This document shows, piece after piece, positions 12,609 to 62,784 of a DNA stretch of 63,238 nucleotides. Source of the stretch: Bacteroidales bacterium Bact_19 (GTDB lineage Bacteria > Bacteroidota > Bacteroidia > Bacteroidales > ML635J-15); contig LUZK01000038.1 of NCBI GenBank assembly GCA_001603595.1, positions 1-63,238 of the forward strand. The letters are read 5' to 3'. The notes beneath the pieces are model-generated. The model saw only the letters and a program-made list of their open reading frames with translations. It was not told where the DNA came from and made no database searches. The position numbers and the translations under genes are program-made. Every line of letters starts with the position of its first letter. Position 1 is the stretch's first letter.

Positions 12609-12787
12609 AAATTTAGTTAGATAGAATTAAGCATTAGTAATGATATGAATTAATACTTAGCTGTTTTAAAAATTGTGGTTTCAGCTTCGCTCAACAATCT
12701 TTAATATCCAGTAACTGCGTCATCAAAGTCTTCGATGATAAAACAAACATATTGATAAAACAATTGTGAATTTATTATTGTTAGGTG
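12609..12787. other. Non-coding stretch between the IS110 remnant and the repeat flank
   Basis: AT-rich sequence without an open frame, tRNA or strong hairpin. It may contain the distal end of the IS110 copy. I see nothing else in it. Confidence 0.4.
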
Positions 12788-12856
12788 TAATTAGTGTTTT
12801 TGATTTTTGTCACAAGTTCATGAACAACAAAACTTCATTTAACCCAAAATCTTTAC
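12788..12856 (-). repeat. Conserved distal flank of RGTT tract 1
   Basis: Read on the minus strand this begins GGTAAAGATTTTGGGTTAAA and continues to a block ending AACACTAATTA. It matches the sequence at 54636-54725 with a few substitutions and a gap of about 20 bp. The flank sits on the side of the tract away from the upstream gene at both loci. Its second half resembles a TGTGGTTCGTGAACTCATGGC-type dispersed element I recall from several environmental genomes, which I cannot verify here. Confidence 0.7.
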
Positions 12857-13011
<155 letters not shown>

Positions 13012-13013
<2 letters not shown>

Positions 13014-13669
13014 ATTCAACAACAGTAATCTTAATAATTTTTACATCTTCAACCGGTCTGTCTTTATCATTTGTTTCGACTCCGGCTATTTTGTCAATCA
13101 CATCGTATCCCTCAATGATTTCTCCAAAAACCGTATATTGAGCATCAAGATGAGGAGCCCCGCCAATTTCAACATAGGTATCTCTTTGTTCTTTAGTGAA
13201 TTTGGTATTCATTTGTTTTTCCATGCTATCGAGTTGCATGTCGGTAAATTTCTTACCGTGAACAATGTAAAACTGCGATCCTGAACTACGGCGTTGTGGA
13301 TTCATTTGATCGCCTGTACGGGCAGCTGCAAGAGCTCCTTTTTTGTGATAATATTTCGGAATTATTTCAGCCGGCAAAGTATATCCTGGGCCTCCATTGC
13401 CTAATTGTTTTGTTAAAGGAGCATTTTTTGATTCCGGATCTCCCTCCTTGAATCATAAATGTATTTATAACCCTGTGAAATAATAAACCTTCGTAAAATC
13501 CTGATTCTGCAAGTTTCACAAAATTGTCGCGATGGATTGGAGTTTCGTCGTAAAGTACGGCTACCATTGTTCCTTTGGAGGTTTCAATCTTTACTTTTAT
13601 TGATTGAGCATAAGCCGTAAATAAAAATAAACTCATAAATGCAAATAATAATCCCGTTTTCATAGTCAA
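13012..13669 (-). pseudogene. Secreted cyclophilin-type peptidyl-prolyl isomerase, frameshifted
   Basis: Two frames together encode a cyclophilin of about 218 residues. The first (from 13669) carries a signal peptide ([22 protein letters not shown]) and [27 protein letters not shown]...[12 protein letters not shown]. The second (to 13012) carries [26 protein letters not shown]...GSQFYIVHG and HLDAQYTVFGEIIEGYDVIDKI. They are joined by one extra G in a GGAGGG run (plus-strand C run 13442-13444). Dropping it restores [28 protein letters not shown], the normal sequence. All active-site segments are otherwise intact, so this is a very recent mutation, a programmed or phase-variable run, or a sequencing error. 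Confidence 0.88.
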
Positions 13670-19531: not shown

Positions 19532-19604
19532 TGACTGATCGGAGACTCGAACTCCGGACCCCCTGCTTAAAAGGCAGGTGCTCTACCTGCTGAGCTAATC
19601 AGTC
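19532..19604 (-). tRNA. tRNA-Lys (anticodon TTT)
   Basis: The minus strand folds into a cloverleaf of 73 nt. It has a 7-bp acceptor stem GACTGAT/ATCAGTC with discriminator A, a D-arm with AGCTCAGCAGGTAGAGC, the anticodon stem CCTGC/GCAGG around CTTTTAA (anticodon TTT, Lys), and a T-arm with GTTCGAGTC. CCA is not encoded. A near-consensus promoter lies upstream and an intrinsic terminator downstream, so it is a single-gene transcript. Confidence 0.97.
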
Positions 19605-48773: not shown

Positions 48774-50426
48774 ATGATTTTAAGATTGATAACACTTATA
48801 CAGCTTTTAATAATTATCGTATTCTACTGTAGTGCAAAAAGTAATAATAATATAGAAAAACCTTATGAACAAACAATTATTAAACCTAAACTGAACAACT
48901 GGTATTATGCAAACATAAACGATTCATTAATTTATTTCCGAGTTAACATTCTGAAAGAAAATTATGCTGAAGGAGAATTTTTTTTGCTTGAAAAGTCACC
49001 TTATGCAAAAAAAGAAAAATTTAAGGTTAAAATTAATGACAATAAATATGAATTAAGTTACAGGGACAAAGTTTTGGAAATGAAAGTTTTAACAAGTGCC
49101 AGGAATGAAAATATTGTTTTTATTTATTCCTTGCGTAAAAAACCTTTTATGTGGATTTTCAACCGATGGGAAGAACCTAAAACTTTTTTTGCAGCAAAAT
49201 TTCGCGAACCTGATTATAAAACATTTCCTAAAAGATATAAAGAAAAGGTTTTTTCAGATATTAATGTTAAAAACGATATTATTTACGGAAAAGCAAAAGG
49301 CTACTGGACGAGCTATCCGGCAGAGGAGGAATCATATCTTGACATTCTTTTAAAGGGGATATTGTCAACATTGAAAAAAAAAGACCTTGAATTAAAAGCA
49401 GATGTTTATTTTCCGACCGAAGATACAATTAAGGAACGCCCTTTTATAATGTTTATTCATGGCGGAGCATTCTATATTGGGGATAAACAGTCGGATGCCA
49501 TGGTTCAGTTTTGCAGATATTTCACTTCATTGGGATATGTTACAGCATCTATAAATTACAGACTGGGGTTTATTCCATTAGGTTCGGAGGTCGAACGGGC
49601 CGGCTACAGAGCTTTACAGGACGCTCATGCAGCAATGCGTTATTTCGTTGAAAACAGAACAAGATTCGGAATTGACACTTCGAAAATTTTTTTAGGAGGT
49701 TCGTCTGCCGGCGGAATTACTGCCTTAAATCTGGCATTTATGCGTAATAATAACAGGCCAAAATCAAGTTTTAAAAATCTGTTGAACGAAGACCTAGGAA
49801 AAATTGAAAGTTCAGGGAACAATCTAAAGAAAAATTTTAGCATAAAGTCTGTGATTAATATGTGGGGAGCAGTTGAAAATACCGATATCTTGAAAAATTC
49901 TAAAGCCTCGGTCATCTCTTTTCACGGCGATGCTGATTTGGTGGTACCTATTAACTGCGATTATCCTTTTAAAGACATACAGGCAAATTTTTCATCTTTA
50001 ATTCTAAACAAAGTTTGCGGTTCTCTCGAAATTCACATTAAACTGCGTGAACTTGAACGTAAAGAGGAACTTCATATTCTGAAAAACAAGGGACATTCTC
50101 CTCATGTGGATGCTGCCAATAAATTAAATGATGTTTTTTATTTTATTTGTTCAAAGTCAACAGATTTTTTGTATTCTGAGCTATTGCCCGAATGTGCGAG
50201 GATTAATACTTATCCCAAAACTCCCGGCAAACGTGCTTCGAGTTTTTATATGGTGGATTGTAATAACTACAGACAAATATACTGGAGAATAAAAGGCGGT
50301 TTAATCATTGGTACTAAAAATAACACTGTGAGAGTTGTATGGTTTGATGATGAACCTGAACATAAATTATTTGCCTCTGTTTTATTTGATAATGGTATTA
50401 GTGAGGTTTTGGAGTATTGGTTTTAG
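48774..50426 (+). CDS. Secreted alpha/beta-hydrolase (carboxylesterase-like) with an extra N-terminal domain
   Basis: A 550-residue exported protein. A signal peptide (~20) leads to about 150 residues of beta-rich sequence that I do not recognise (LNNWYYANINDSLIYFRVNILKENYAEGEF...). The hydrolase core follows: oxyanion motif FIHGGAFYIGDK (~228), nucleophile GGSSAGG (Ser ~309), acid in FHGDADLVVP and base His in NKGHSPHVD. It ends with a short beta tail. The closest general family is bacterial carboxylesterases acting on acetylated or feruloylated glycans, unproven here. Its TAG stop (50424-50426) lies at the start of RGTT tract 2. Confidence 0.82.
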   Translation: MILRLITLIQLLIIIVFYCSAKSNNNIEKPYEQTIIKPKLNNWYYANINDSLIYFRVNILKENYAEGEFFLLEKSPYAKKEKFKVKINDNKYELSYRDKVLEMKVLTSARNENIVFIYSLRKKPFMWIFNRWEEPKTFFAAKFREPDYKTFPKRYKEKVFSDINVKNDIIYGKAKGYWTSYPAEEESYLDILLKGILSTLKKKDLELKADVYFPTEDTIKERPFIMFIHGGAFYIGDKQSDAMVQFCRYFTSLGYVTASINYRLGFIPLGSEVERAGYRALQDAHAAMRYFVENRTRFGIDTSKIFLGGSSAGGITALNLAFMRNNNRPKSSFKNLLNEDLGKIESSGNNLKKNFSIKSVINMWGAVENTDILKNSKASVISFHGDADLVVPINCDYPFKDIQANFSSLILNKVCGSLEIHIKLRELERKEELHILKNKGHSPHVDAANKLNDVFYFICSKSTDFLYSELLPECARINTYPKTPGKRASSFYMVDCNNYRQIYWRIKGGLIIGTKNNTVRVVWFDDEPEHKLFASVLFDNGISEVLEYWF

Positions 50427-50672
50427 TTAGTTGGTTAGTTGGTTGGTTGGTTGGTTAGTTGGTTAGTTAGTTAGTTGGTTGGTTAGTTAGTTAGTTGGTT
50501 GGTTGGTTAGTTGGTTAGTTAGTTAGTTAGTTAGTTGGTTGGTTAGTTAGTTGGTTGGTTGGTTAGTTGGTTAGTTAGTTGGTTGGTTAGTTGGTTAGTT
50601 AGTTAGTTGGTTGGTTAGTTAGTTAGTTGGTTGGTTAGTTAGTTAGTTGGTTAGTTGGTTAGTTGGTTGGTT
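50425..50672 (+). repeat. RGTT tetranucleotide tract 2: 62 perfect units
   Basis: 248 bp made only of AGTT or GGTT (29 GGTT, 33 AGTT by my count), with no departure from RGTT. It begins inside the stop codon of the upstream esterase (TAG at 50424-50426) and ends at TTGATAAATT. The order of A and G units is irregular but shows recurring AGTT-AGTT-AGTT-GGTT-GGTT blocks. Unlike tracts 1 and 3 there is no shared distal flank; the sequence after it is GATAAATTAGATGGGGGG. Confidence 0.97.
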
Positions 50673-52090: not shown

Positions 52091-52948
52091 ATGAGAAAGA
52101 TATTATGGTTTTTAATTTTAATGTTAAATCTAAGCTATTATTACTCACAGGTAGAAATTCCTGTTGCAAGTCAGACTGACCTGAATAAATTTTTAAGATC
52201 AACAACACTAGTAGTACTTAAAAATGATAGAACATCTGATTATAATGATGCCATTCGTGAAGCTGTAGAAAAGTTCTGGACTCTCACTCCTTATGAGTTT
52301 ATTTATGAATCGGATTTTAAAAAATATATGAAAGATTCAGGAAAATCATTTCTTATGATAAATCAGGTTTATTTCGAAAAAGATAAAACACAAACTCTTT
52401 TTGATTTTTTAATATTAACAAACGGAGGTAATTACAAGGATGTTAATGATATGCCAACTATTGCGGCAGTTCCATTGTGCTACAACGGAGCTTTGGAGTC
52501 CGAATATGCCTATAAGATGGGAGCAATTGTTAAATTTGTTCAATTACACGTTAAGACATGCAAAGAAAATCCTTCTTTAAATAAAGATAATATTGCAAAA
52601 TATTATCTCGAAAAATCCGGTAGCCCCCGAAAAAAAACATTATACTTACTAAAAACTGAAATTGAACCCGATATCCGAACTAAAAATTCTCTTGCCTCGG
52701 TTTATCCTTTTTCTTTTGAATATGCAGAACGGGAGGATATAAAAAAACTAATTGATAAAGAGGATGAAAATGCAATAATGCTACATTTAATTAAACCAAA
52801 ACTTAGTTCTACACTTTCATATTGCGTGAAAATTATTTTTGATGCAAAATCCGGTTTGATATATTATTATGATTCGCATAAAATTACTGAAAAAGCCAGG
52901 GATTACATACTTAAATCGGATATCAAAAAATTAGCCTCAAAAAAATGA
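52091..52948 (+). CDS. Exported protein of unknown function in the recR-folC operon
   Basis: A 285-residue protein with a signal peptide (to about SYYYSQ). The mature part begins VEIPVASQTDLNKFLRSTTLVVLKNDRTSDYNDAIREAVEKFWTLTPYEFI, an alpha/beta pattern reminiscent of periplasmic proteins of unknown role. YCVKIIFDAKSGLIYYYDSHKITEKARDYILKSDIKKLA lies near the end. No catalytic motif is obvious. It overlaps folC by the ATGA tetranucleotide, so translation is coupled to folC. Confidence 0.68.
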   Translation: MRKILWFLILMLNLSYYYSQVEIPVASQTDLNKFLRSTTLVVLKNDRTSDYNDAIREAVEKFWTLTPYEFIYESDFKKYMKDSGKSFLMINQVYFEKDKTQTLFDFLILTNGGNYKDVNDMPTIAAVPLCYNGALESEYAYKMGAIVKFVQLHVKTCKENPSLNKDNIAKYYLEKSGSPRKKTLYLLKTEIEPDIRTKNSLASVYPFSFEYAEREDIKKLIDKEDENAIMLHLIKPKLSSTLSYCVKIIFDAKSGLIYYYDSHKITEKARDYILKSDIKKLASKK

Positions 52949-54237
52949 ATTACGAAGAAGTACTGAAGTTTATGTACGAGTCGCTGCCAATGTATCAGAG
53001 GATAGGAGCAGCGGCATATAAGGCAGATCTCAATACTACAATTAAGCTTGATGATTATTTCGGGAATCCTCACAAACATTATAAAACCATTCATATAGCA
53101 GGTACAAACGGTAAGGGATCTGTTTCACATTCGCTGGCATCTGTTCTGCAAGAAGCAGGTTACAAAACAGGACTATATACATCTCCGCATCTTGTTGATT
53201 ATCGCGAAAGAATTAGAGTAAATGGAGAAAAAATCTCAAAAGAATTTGTAACTGATTTTATAAATAATAATCTTAAAGTCTTGAAAGAATTAAAACCTTC
53301 TTTCTTTGAGATGTCTGTTGCTTTGGCGTTTGAGTATTTCCGTTTTATGAAGGTAGATATTGCTGTGATAGAAGTTGGAATGGGAGGGAGGTTGGATTCT
53401 ACTAACATTATCAATCCCATAATTTCAGTCATAACAAATATTGATTATGACCACACTCAATTTCTTGGTGATACAAAAGAAAAAATAGCAGTTGAAAAAG
53501 CGGGTATAATAAAACCAAAAGTTCCTGTAATTATAGGAGAATCCTCTCCGGAAACTGATAATGTGTTTTTACAAAAAGCAAAGTCTGAAAATTCCCGCAT
53601 TTTATTCACAGATAAAATAAGCACTTGCGAACAAATCAAAAGCGATTTTGAAAATTCTATATACAGATTTTCAAAAAATGGTATTAGCAACGAATTTAAT
53701 TTTGCTTTAGGTGGAAATTATCAACATAAGAATTTAAACCTAATAATTAATGCCGTTGAGTGTATAAATGATATAGGTGTAAAAATTAATGATGATAGTC
53801 TAGCAAACGGATTAAAAAATGTAGTTAAAAATACAAGTTTCAGAGGGAGATGGGAAAAACTAAACGACAACCCTCTTTGTGTCTGCGATACCGGACATAA
53901 CAAAAATGGAATCACCGAAATAATTAAACAAATTAAAAATATAAAGGCAGATAAATACCATTTTGTCTTGGGTTTTGTAAGCGATAAAAATGTTTCCGAA
54001 CTTCTGGAACTTTTCCCTAACGACGAAAGAAATAAGTACTATTTTACTCAAGCATCAATTCCAAGGGCAATGTCCATTGAAGATTTAAAAAATATTGTAA
54101 TTACAAAATGTTTTTCGCAGGTAAGTTTTTATTCCAATGTTCCTTCAGCATATAATGCAGCAATGAGTTCTGCGGGTGAAAATGATTTTGTTTTTGTTGG
54201 TGGTAGTAATTTTGTTGTTGGGGAGATAGTTGGTTAG
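52945..54237 (+). CDS. folC: Dihydrofolate synthase / folylpolyglutamate synthase
   Basis: Adds glutamate to dihydropteroate and folates. The 430-residue Mur-ligase-like enzyme has the ATP loop HIAGTNGKGSVSHSLASVLQ (~49-68), the substrate loop YTSPHLVDYRERIRVNG, the metal/ATP motif VIEVGMGGRLDSTN, ITNIDYDHTQFLG, and the C-terminal domain entry RGRWEKLNDNPLCVCDTGHNKNG. The natural C terminus is nearly intact (FVFVGGSNFVVGEIV). The last Gly codon and the TAG stop (54235-54237) are part of RGTT tract 3, so the repeat has replaced the native stop. Confidence 0.95.
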   Translation: MNYEEVLKFMYESLPMYQRIGAAAYKADLNTTIKLDDYFGNPHKHYKTIHIAGTNGKGSVSHSLASVLQEAGYKTGLYTSPHLVDYRERIRVNGEKISKEFVTDFINNNLKVLKELKPSFFEMSVALAFEYFRFMKVDIAVIEVGMGGRLDSTNIINPIISVITNIDYDHTQFLGDTKEKIAVEKAGIIKPKVPVIIGESSPETDNVFLQKAKSENSRILFTDKISTCEQIKSDFENSIYRFSKNGISNEFNFALGGNYQHKNLNLIINAVECINDIGVKINDDSLANGLKNVVKNTSFRGRWEKLNDNPLCVCDTGHNKNGITEIIKQIKNIKADKYHFVLGFVSDKNVSELLELFPNDERNKYYFTQASIPRAMSIEDLKNIVITKCFSQVSFYSNVPSAYNAAMSSAGENDFVFVGGSNFVVGEIVG

Positions 54238-54635
54238 TTAGTTAGTTGGTTGGTTAGTTAGTTGGTTAGTTGGTTGGTTAGTTAGTTGGTTGGTTAGTTG
54301 GTTAGTTAGTTGGTTGGTTAGTTGGTTGGTTGGTTAGTTAGTTGGTTAGTTAGTTAGTTGGTTGGTTAGTTGGTTAGTTAGTTGGTTGGTTGGTTGGTTA
54401 GTTAGTTGGTTGGTTAGTTGGTTAGTTAGTTGGTTGGTTAGTTGGTTGGTTGGTTAGTTGGTTGGTTGGTTAGTTGGTTAGTTAGTTGGTTAGTTGGTTA
54501 GTTGGTTGGTTGGTTAGTTGGTTAGTTGGTTAGTTGGTTAGTTAGTTGGTTGGTTAGTTGGTTGGTTAGTTAGTTGGTTGGTTAGTTGGTTAGTTGGTTG
54601 GTTGGTTGGTTAGTTAGTTAGTTAGTTGGTTGGTT
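54228..54635 (+). repeat. RGTT tetranucleotide tract 3: 102 perfect units, overlapping the folC 3' end
   Basis: 408 bp consisting only of AGTT and GGTT (about 55 GGTT and 47 AGTT), beginning inside the last codons of folC. A 68-bp run (17 units in identical A/G order) appears at 54272-54339 and again at 54392-54459, suggesting growth by segment duplication as well as by slippage. The tract is followed at 54636 by the conserved flank shared with tract 1. Confidence 0.97.
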
Positions 54636-54725
54636 GGTAAAGATTTTGGGTTAAATGAAATTTTGTGGTTCGTGAACTCATGGCTAAAATTTAAGCCACT
54701 GATAGTACAAATAAACACTAATTAG
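54636..54725 (+). repeat. Conserved distal flank of RGTT tract 3
   Basis: Starts GGTAAAGATTTTGGGTTAAA and ends ...AAACACTAATTA. It aligns with the reverse complement of 12788-12856, with a ~20-bp gap in the other copy. A small hairpin TGGCT/AGCCA occurs inside (54680-54697). The rest of the gap to the Crp/Fnr gene (54726-54869) shows nothing recognisable. Confidence 0.75.
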
Positions 54726-62370: not shown

Positions 62371-62775
62371 TTCATATTCAAATTTATGTTGTTAAAAAAA
62401 ATTTCCAAAATATCACTAGAAATAGGAAGTGATTTAATTTAGATAGAGTGATGTTTTTCTGTTATTCATATTCAAATTTATGTTGTTAATAAAATCCTGA
62501 AAGTGTCATTAGAATTTGAAAGGGATTAATTATAAAGGATGTTTTTAAGGGTTCATGTTATAAATAATGATGTTGAAAATTTGTTGAAAGATAAATGGGA
62601 AAATTGAAATTGAGTTTTGAGATTTGGGAATAAGGTTTTTAATACGATTTTCATATTCAAAATAGTATTGTTAAATTATTGAAATAAAATTGTAGAGTTA
62701 AAATTGCGATGTGGGAATGTAATTTATTACTTTTAATTTTGAAAGAAAAAATTCATATTCAAATTTATGTTGTTA
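62371..62775. repeat. Decayed ~94-bp tandem array with a 24-bp core
   Basis: Cores beginning TTCATATTCAAA and ending TGTTGTTA are identical at 62371-62394, 62465-62488 and 62752-62775, with degenerate copies at 62650-62673 and 62552-62576. Start-to-start spacing is 94, 87, 98 and 102 bp. The spacers after the first two cores are also similar (ATCACTAGAAAT...GATGTTTTTC against GTCATTAGAATT...GATGTTTTTA), so the true unit is about 94 bp. It fills the gap between the Spy-like gene and the IS1595-type transposase. The outermost core leads directly into that gene's promoter. The rest of this gap (62264-62370) shows nothing clear. Confidence 0.85.
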
Positions 62776-62784
62776 GATTTGTTT

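What the first reader, a model, noticed from the sequence alone, without database searches (positions are those of the whole stretch)
54228..54635. 408 bp of uninterrupted RGTT (102 units) replacing the 3' end of folC
Every one of 102 consecutive units is AGTT or GGTT; only the first base varies. A pure tetranucleotide run of this size is exceptional in a bacterial chromosome. It also supplies the folC stop codon (GGT TAG) and the last Gly codon. Free slippage would give uniform units, but here A and G alternate irregularly, so something either preserves RGTT while letting R drift or builds the tract by duplication.
Basis: seen in the sequence. Interest (0 to 1): 0.8.

Follow-up and report, generated by a model that had tools for sequence, protein, structure and literature searches.

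The report
Gene-edge arrays of RGTT repeats
A 408-base run of one four-letter DNA repeat at the end of a folate gene is real, and it is one of at least fourteen such runs in this bacterium that start at gene edges and point the same way, much like unexplained repeats already known from Xanthomonas and Nostoc.

Summary
The tract is real: 102 perfect AGTT/GGTT units at 54228-54635. It is one of at least 14 such arrays in this Bacteroidales genome, three of them in the window. It supplies the last codons and the TAG stop of folC, which ends 2-5 residues short of most homologues.

In all 13 arrays that could be scored, the 5' end of the RGTT strand lies at a gene edge: 12 at the stop of a same-strand gene, one at the start of a divergent gene. 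The nearest relative has tracts or remnants at 11 of 11 comparable sites, same strand, with very different lengths, so the tract is not an assembly artefact. Several long arrays show duplicated multi-unit blocks. One array end plus 3' tail was copied between two loci of the window. Mixed A/G arrays in a Caldilineales genome show the same geometry; mostly uniform AGTT or GGTT microsatellites do not (15 of 51 against 40 of 43, p = 2e-10).

This is the geometry published for heptamer repeats of Xanthomonas and Nostoc. It is best read as a new tetranucleotide variant of that class, probably passive. How sites are founded, and why only R varies, is unexplained.

The parts
54228..54635 (+). RGTT array, 102 perfect units, sense strand of folC
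52945..54237 (+). folC (430 aa); last base of the Ile codon, Val, Gly and the TAG stop come from the array
   Evidence: full-length matches in 20 of 25 other same-genus genomes
54636..54722 (+). 3' tail, shared with the tail of the array at 12862-13013
   Evidence: local alignment score 81 against a maximum of 28 in 200 shuffles; the 23 bases at 54637-54659 occur at only these two places in the genome with up to 3 mismatches
50425..50672 (+). RGTT array, 62 units, beginning at the TAG stop of the esterase-like gene
48774..50426 (+). BD-FAE / alpha-beta hydrolase gene whose stop is the first TAG of the array
12862..13013 (-). RGTT array, 30 RGTT units with some imperfect ones, beginning at the TAG stop of a cyclophilin gene
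13012..13377 (-). C-terminal part of a cyclophilin-type isomerase gene
12774..12857 (-). 3' tail homologous to 54636-54722

Best explanation
The tract is one member of a genome-wide family of polarised tandem arrays, in the same general class as the gene-edge heptamer repeats of Xanthomonas and Nostoc. Each array has the 5' end of its G-bearing strand (RGTT) at a gene edge. Shown: the comparable sites are shared with the nearest sequenced relative, so they were occupied in the common ancestor; boundaries there are the same or nearly so while the interior differs greatly in length; several long arrays carry duplicated multi-unit blocks; an array end plus tail was copied once between two loci. 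Inferred: length changes by slipped-strand or unequal recombination of multi-unit blocks, which can keep a mixed A/G make-up instead of homogenising it; new sites arise rarely by copying of an array end to another locus, where it can replace spacer DNA until selection stops it at coding sequence or a promoter. Because AGTT carries TAG in every frame on the sense strand, an array abutting or entering a gene end supplies a stop, so its length should be neutral for the protein. The arrays are most likely passive.
For: 535 of 539 five-unit windows lie in 14 arrays. 13 of 13 scorable own arrays have a 5' gap of 50 bp or less, 12 at a sense stop and one at an antisense start; 1 of 13 has a 3' gap that small. 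5' gap of 50 bp or less: own, G004, Caldilineales and other mixed arrays 40 of 43, pure arrays 15 of 51, Fisher p 1.8e-10. 11 of 11 comparable sites in G004 carry a tract or remnant on the same strand, e.g. 20 against 102 units at folC. Exact internal repeats of up to 119 bp in one array and 71 bp here. Block repeats exceed first-order Markov shuffles at p 0.04 or less in 4 of 18 arrays tested, all among the 6 with 59 or more units. Two tails in the window score 81 against each other; the folC tail and its G004 orthologue score 41. Array genes stop with TAG in 10 of 11, other genes with 80 bp or more of spacer in 4 of 35 (p 2e-6). Ten array genes scanned have unrelated functions. The published geometry is the same (PMC4692102).
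Against: Passive slippage does not explain why every own locus has the same unit and the same degenerate position: in 691 parsed own units position 1 is A 395, G 289, T 7, while positions 2-4 depart 19 times (the parser skips units with more than one change, so departures are undercounted; in Caldilineales positions 2-4 depart 31 times in 506). The founding step was not observed. The tail copy is one event; other 3' flanks of different loci did not align above about 30. 14 of 18 arrays tested show no excess of block repeats, two of those with 59 or more units. Boundaries look static between G000 and G004 (by eye), so creeping towards the gene was not seen. Conserved sites could equally mean function.
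Confidence: 0.55

Rival explanations
1. Ordinary microsatellites born independently at each locus from a TAGTT-like seed at a stop codon and grown by simple slippage.
For: Long, mostly uniform AGTT or GGTT arrays occur in many other bacteria. The edge of a gene is where coding selection ends. AGTT carries a TAG, so an array entering a gene end makes its own stop. 14 of 18 arrays tested show no excess of block repeats.
Against: Pure arrays are symmetric: nearer their 5' gene edge in 27 of 51, against 36 of 43 for the other sets. One motif with one degenerate position at 14 unrelated loci is not what independent births should give. 11 of 11 comparable sites are shared with G004. Two own arrays and one in G004 lie at a start, not a stop.
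Confidence: 0.2
2. A functional gene-end element: the C-free G/U-rich RNA after the stop codon, or the DNA itself (G-quadruplex, R-loop, pausing), shapes transcript ends, decay or protein binding.
For: Sense stop in 12 of 13 scorable own arrays and 12 of 18 scorable Caldilineales arrays. Sites shared across species. Three convergent gene pairs in Caldilineales in which each gene has its own sense array (L072, L112, L116). Three 140-nt sense array pieces fold better than dinucleotide shuffles (z -3.5 to -4.0), while the antisense strand does not fold. In X. axonopodis pv. citri, transcripts started or stopped more often at the G4-forming repeats than at control repeats (PMC4692102, section 15).
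Against: The folds are weak in absolute terms, -6.4 to -8.6 kcal/mol per 140 nt, and the whole folC tract with its tail folds no better than shuffles (z +0.87). Only GG tracts, 0-3 GGTTx4 sites per array. A hairpin-plus-T terminator still follows the L055 array and its G004 orthologue, read by eye. Some arrays are antisense at start codons. G004 has only short remnants at two sites.
Confidence: 0.18
3. Templated addition: a trans-acting enzyme copying a short AACU-like template adds RGTT to DNA 3' ends at gene edges.
For: One unit and one degenerate position at all own loci. R is the only position that would be copied from a T or U, where G.T or G.U wobble is the easy error (inference). Tail copying shows some dispersal.
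Against: No enzyme or template RNA was searched for. Rfam at gathering thresholds gives only a tRNA in the window. The degenerate position of the Nostoc heptamer is not explained by the same rule (inference).
Confidence: 0.05
4. Assembly artefact of repeat collapse or chimerism.
For: A contig ends at or within a few bases of an array in both genomes, so some lengths are uncertain. Read type and length are unknown.
Against: The longest internal exact repeat at folC is 71 bp, which 150-bp reads could span. A separate assembly, G004, has the tract at the same place.
Confidence: 0.02

Closest known systems
GGGAATC / GGGGA(C/T)T heptamer repeats of Xanthomonas and Nostoc (Rehm et al. 2015, PMC4692102; abstract, passages, sections 15 and 16 read)
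   Same: Dispersed intergenic tandem arrays; G-rich strand at or overlapping the stop codon when sense, or next to the start codon when antisense; mostly between the same genes in two Xanthomonas species with length and sequence variation; inverted pairs; one degenerate position in Nostoc; genes of many functional classes; cause and role unknown.
   Different: Unit of 4 not 7; GG not GGG tracts; up to 146 units with no preference for four; 14 loci here against 183 repeats in one Xanthomonas genome; other phyla; the paper reports a non-coding-strand preference in Nostoc.
TAACTGA direct repeats of Beggiatoaceae, Cyanobacteria and five Bacteroidetes (PMC4679880; abstract and passages read)
   Same: One short unit in tandem at many intergenic sites; forward repeats give stop codons in all three frames; some overlap the stop of an upstream gene.
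   Different: In the Guaymas Maribeggiatoa genome mostly a few bases upstream of a start codon; heptamer, 2-6 copies per set there.
Tetranucleotide phase-variation tracts, e.g. Moraxella, Haemophilus (recalled, not tested)
   Same: Tetranucleotide tracts; the uniform GGTT arrays in Moraxella loci read (AACC)n on the other strand.
   Different: As recalled, those are uniform and sit in reading frames or promoters; here tracts are mixed and most begin at a stop codon, where length change should not switch the gene off.

Membership tests
Rehm-type gene-edge G-rich repeats | Array 5' end within 50 bp of an ORF edge: sense stop or antisense start | tested here: met
   13 of 13 scorable own arrays, 5 of 5 in G004, 16 of 18 Caldilineales; pure controls 15 of 51
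Rehm-type gene-edge G-rich repeats | Sites shared between sister species with variable unit number | tested here: met
   11 of 11 comparable sites, two of them short remnants in G004; 3 of 14 own sites had no orthologue found there
Rehm-type gene-edge G-rich repeats | Heptameric GGGNATC-type unit | tested here: not met
   Unit is RGTT
Rehm-type gene-edge G-rich repeats | GGG tracts and preference for four units | tested here: not met
   GG at most in the unit; own arrays have 6-146 RGTT units
Rehm-type gene-edge G-rich repeats | G-quadruplex formation | not testable with these tools
   0-3 GGTTx4 sites per array were counted; folding into G4 not measured
Phase-variable SSR (contingency locus) | Tract length changes reading frame or promoter spacing of a gene | tested here: inconclusive
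   Not met for 12 of 14 own arrays, which begin at a stop codon; for the two beside a divergent start, promoter spacing was not measured
Classical uniform microsatellite | Uniform units | tested here: not met
   A 395, G 289 of 691 own units
Described RNA family in Rfam | Covariance-model match in or beside the array | tested here: not met
   Only a tRNA at 19532-19604 in the whole window at gathering thresholds

The most novel reading that the evidence does not exclude
The arrays are built by a trans-acting, sequence-templated process that adds RGTT to DNA 3' ends at gene edges. The single degenerate base arises because it is the only one copied from a T or U, where G pairs by wobble. The Xanthomonas and Nostoc heptamers would be other outputs of the same kind of process.
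Probability: 0.05. Interest if true: 0.9.

Novelty: new variant of a known kind. Interest (0 to 1): 0.5.

Why it matters
Gene-edge tandem arrays have been described in Xanthomonas and cyanobacteria without a known cause. Here the same geometry appears with a different unit in a Bacteroidales genome and a Caldilineales genome, while mostly uniform microsatellites made of the same letters lack it. That separates two classes usually lumped as simple sequence repeats and makes the origin question testable: G004 and this genome form a natural pair with the same sites and very different lengths.

Tried and rejected
Stable RNA hairpin: RGUU can pair with itself through G.U and A-U; array pieces alone fold better than shuffles (z -3.5 to -4.0) but weakly, and tract plus tail no better than shuffles. 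Rfam: nothing at the arrays. A common 3' tail: rejected, only the two loci in the window share one. An A-rich to G-rich gradient along arrays: not significant (own p 0.055, G004 0.31, Caldilineales 0.97). A leading/lagging-strand rule: not tested; both orientations occur in this contig (one search gives the skew). Purely transcription-coupled expansion: disfavoured because some arrays lie antisense at start codons. A share tracking host GC: weak, since own (57% A of 691 units) and G004 (46% of 168) differ at equal GC. Short RGTN tracts of four or more units elsewhere in the fetched own sequence (about 175 kb): none outside the arrays. Phylum: 2 of 395 genomes matched the pattern used, own and G266, whose two matches are one GGTT followed by six AGTT. 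Of 60 relatives only G004 and G034 (13 uniform AGTT) matched eight units. Literature: the listed titles and abstract starts (25 of 76 papers listed), 48, 52, 58, 59, 66 and 67 describe no RGTT arrays; most subscription papers are not in that library.

Limits. Genes were called as longest non-overlapping ORFs, crude in GC-rich Caldilineales. The own, G004 and Caldilineales sets were not filtered for mixedness; one of 22 Caldilineales arrays is uniform. 'Pure' means at least 90% one letter; 9 of 111 other arrays, neither pure nor mixed, were left out. The mixed/pure split was made after the Caldilineales contexts had been seen. Two of the 10 other mixed arrays are a strict AG alternation. Arrays inside ORFs or without both neighbours were dropped from gap counts: own 1 of 14, G004 1 of 6, Caldilineales 4 of 22, other mixed 3 of 10, pure 41 of 92. 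Own and G004 arrays at the same genes are not independent; without G004 the contrast is 35 of 38 against 15 of 51, p 1.4e-9. Arrays within one genome share ancestry too. Folding and block tests used a few arrays as stated. The 68 viral-contig loci entered the listings only.

Full report
Observation. The sequence at 54228-54635 is 102 RGTT units without exception, 47 AGTT and 55 GGTT. Two more arrays lie in the window, 50425-50672 on the + strand and 12862-13013 on the - strand. Across the 3.07-Mb genome five units in a row occur 539 times (control, pattern read backwards: 1). Boundary patterns plus the window gave 14 arrays, which hold 535 of the 539. The longest is 589 bp.

Effect on folC. 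The array supplies the last base of the Ile codon, Val, Gly and TAG. In the search of 26 same-genus genomes all 26 had a match at E 0.001 or better, but G024 only through a short stretch that looks like a paralogue; 20 of the 25 others have a full-length match, G004 at 89% identity and the rest at 57-63%. In 18 readable array-free homologues, 16 end 4-7 residues after the VVGDL-like motif; own folC ends 2 after it and G004's 6 after it. So the conserved part is intact and the last few residues are array-encoded. The dihydrolipoyl dehydrogenase and cyclophilin genes with arrays end at the same residue position as array-free homologues in G003. Ten of the 12 genes with a sense array were scanned with Pfam, folC and the L052 gene not; all ten matched and their functions are unrelated.

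Geometry. For the 13 own arrays with both neighbours in view, the 5' end of the RGTT strand lies within 50 bp of a gene edge in 13 of 13: 12 at the stop of a same-strand gene, overlapping the gene by 1-46 bp, and one 16 bp from the start of a divergent gene. The fourteenth, cut by a contig end, is 47 bp from a divergent start. The 3' side is within 50 bp in 1 of 13. Array genes stop with TAG in 10 of 11, other genes with 80 bp or more of spacer in 4 of 35, p 2e-6, as expected if the array supplies the stop.

Control. A capped sample of long RGTT arrays from 117 stretches of public genomes holds 111 arrays outside Caldilineales: 92 pure (75 strictly uniform), 10 mixed, 9 neither. Pure arrays show no polarity: 5' gap of 50 bp or less in 15 of 51, 3' gap in 17 of 51. 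The own, G004, Caldilineales and other mixed arrays together: 40 of 43 and 12 of 43, p 1.8e-10 for the 5' side. Nearer to the 5' gene edge: 36 of 43 against 27 of 51; G004 alone is only 3 of 5. Caldilineales MAG_24 (Chloroflexota, recalled) has 22 arrays in the ten loci seen; 16 of 18 scorable ones are 5'-anchored, 12 at a sense stop. In three convergent gene pairs there each gene has its own sense array (L072, L112, L116).

Relatives. Of 60 relatives only G004 (same genus) and G034 (13 uniform AGTT) have eight units in a row. In G004, 11 of 11 comparable sites hold a tract or remnant at the same gene edge and strand: 20 against 102 units at folC, 16 against 63, 26 against 146, 60 up to a contig end against 44, and only short remnants at two sites. 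Read by eye, the 5' boundary is the same base or nearly so at most of them. Three own sites could not be compared because no orthologue was found in G004 (two of them re-sought as proteins). G004 also has one further array sense at a stop and one antisense between two genes; these were not sought in G000.

How it changes. The A/G strings carry long repeated blocks: 29 units in one array, 17 in the folC array, 18 in a third. Of 18 arrays tested, 4 exceed first-order shuffles at p 0.04 or less, all among the 6 with 59 or more units; the other two of those gave p 0.22 and 0.32. The A share is 57% in own units and 46% in G004, both at 33% GC, and 24% in Caldilineales at 64% GC, so a link with host GC is only suggested. 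The single tolerant position at every own locus is what passive slippage explains least.

Dispersal. The tails of the arrays at 54228 and 12862 align over about 85 bp (score 81, shuffles at most 28), better than the folC tail aligns to its own G004 orthologue (41); 23 bases of it occur nowhere else in the genome with up to 3 mismatches. An array end was thus copied between loci 41 kb apart on opposite strands, by the simplest reading after the split from G004. No cyclophilin orthologue was found in G004 to confirm that.

Known kind. Rehm et al. (PMC4692102; [quoted passage not shown] The geometry is the same; unit length, G-tract size and unit-number preference are not. The TAACTGA repeats (PMC4679880; abstract and passages read) lie mostly before start codons in the main genome studied. 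I therefore call this a new variant of a known, unexplained kind.

Function. No direct evidence for one. The sense RNA folds better than shuffles but weakly, a terminator-like hairpin still follows one array and its orthologue (by eye), and length change after a stop codon should not alter the protein. I put passive turnover first, with gene-end function and simple independent microsatellites as rivals.

Noticed in passing
13012-13669, - strand: The cyclophilin gene beside the third array appears as two overlapping ORFs in different frames (100 and 121 aa), while G003 and G011 have single ORFs of about 217 aa; a frameshift or an assembly error.
   Followed up: partly
62371-62781: Four copies of a 30-nt repeat beginning TTCATATTCAAA, start-to-start spacing 94-185 bp.
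   Followed up: no
L255 and L256, after folC: In two other same-genus genomes folC is followed by other tandem-like intergenic repeats, of CGCAAAG or CACAAAG type, so this gene end may collect repeats.
   Followed up: no
L103:2937-3803: Pedobacter arcticus A12 has a tract of 216 AGTT units, longer than any array here.
   Followed up: no
L072, L112, L147: Caldilineales MAG_24 arrays are followed by other C-free tandem runs such as GGTAGATT and by inverted copies of them.
   Followed up: partly
G004 genome: The reversed control pattern (TTGR units) matched 14 times forward and once reverse in G004, which hints at another tandem tract there.
   Followed up: no
45238, - strand, just after the stop: A gene ends in TAA followed by AACTAACTAAACTCTACCAACCAA, a short degenerate AACY run in the sense direction, the opposite strand to the arrays.
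   Followed up: no
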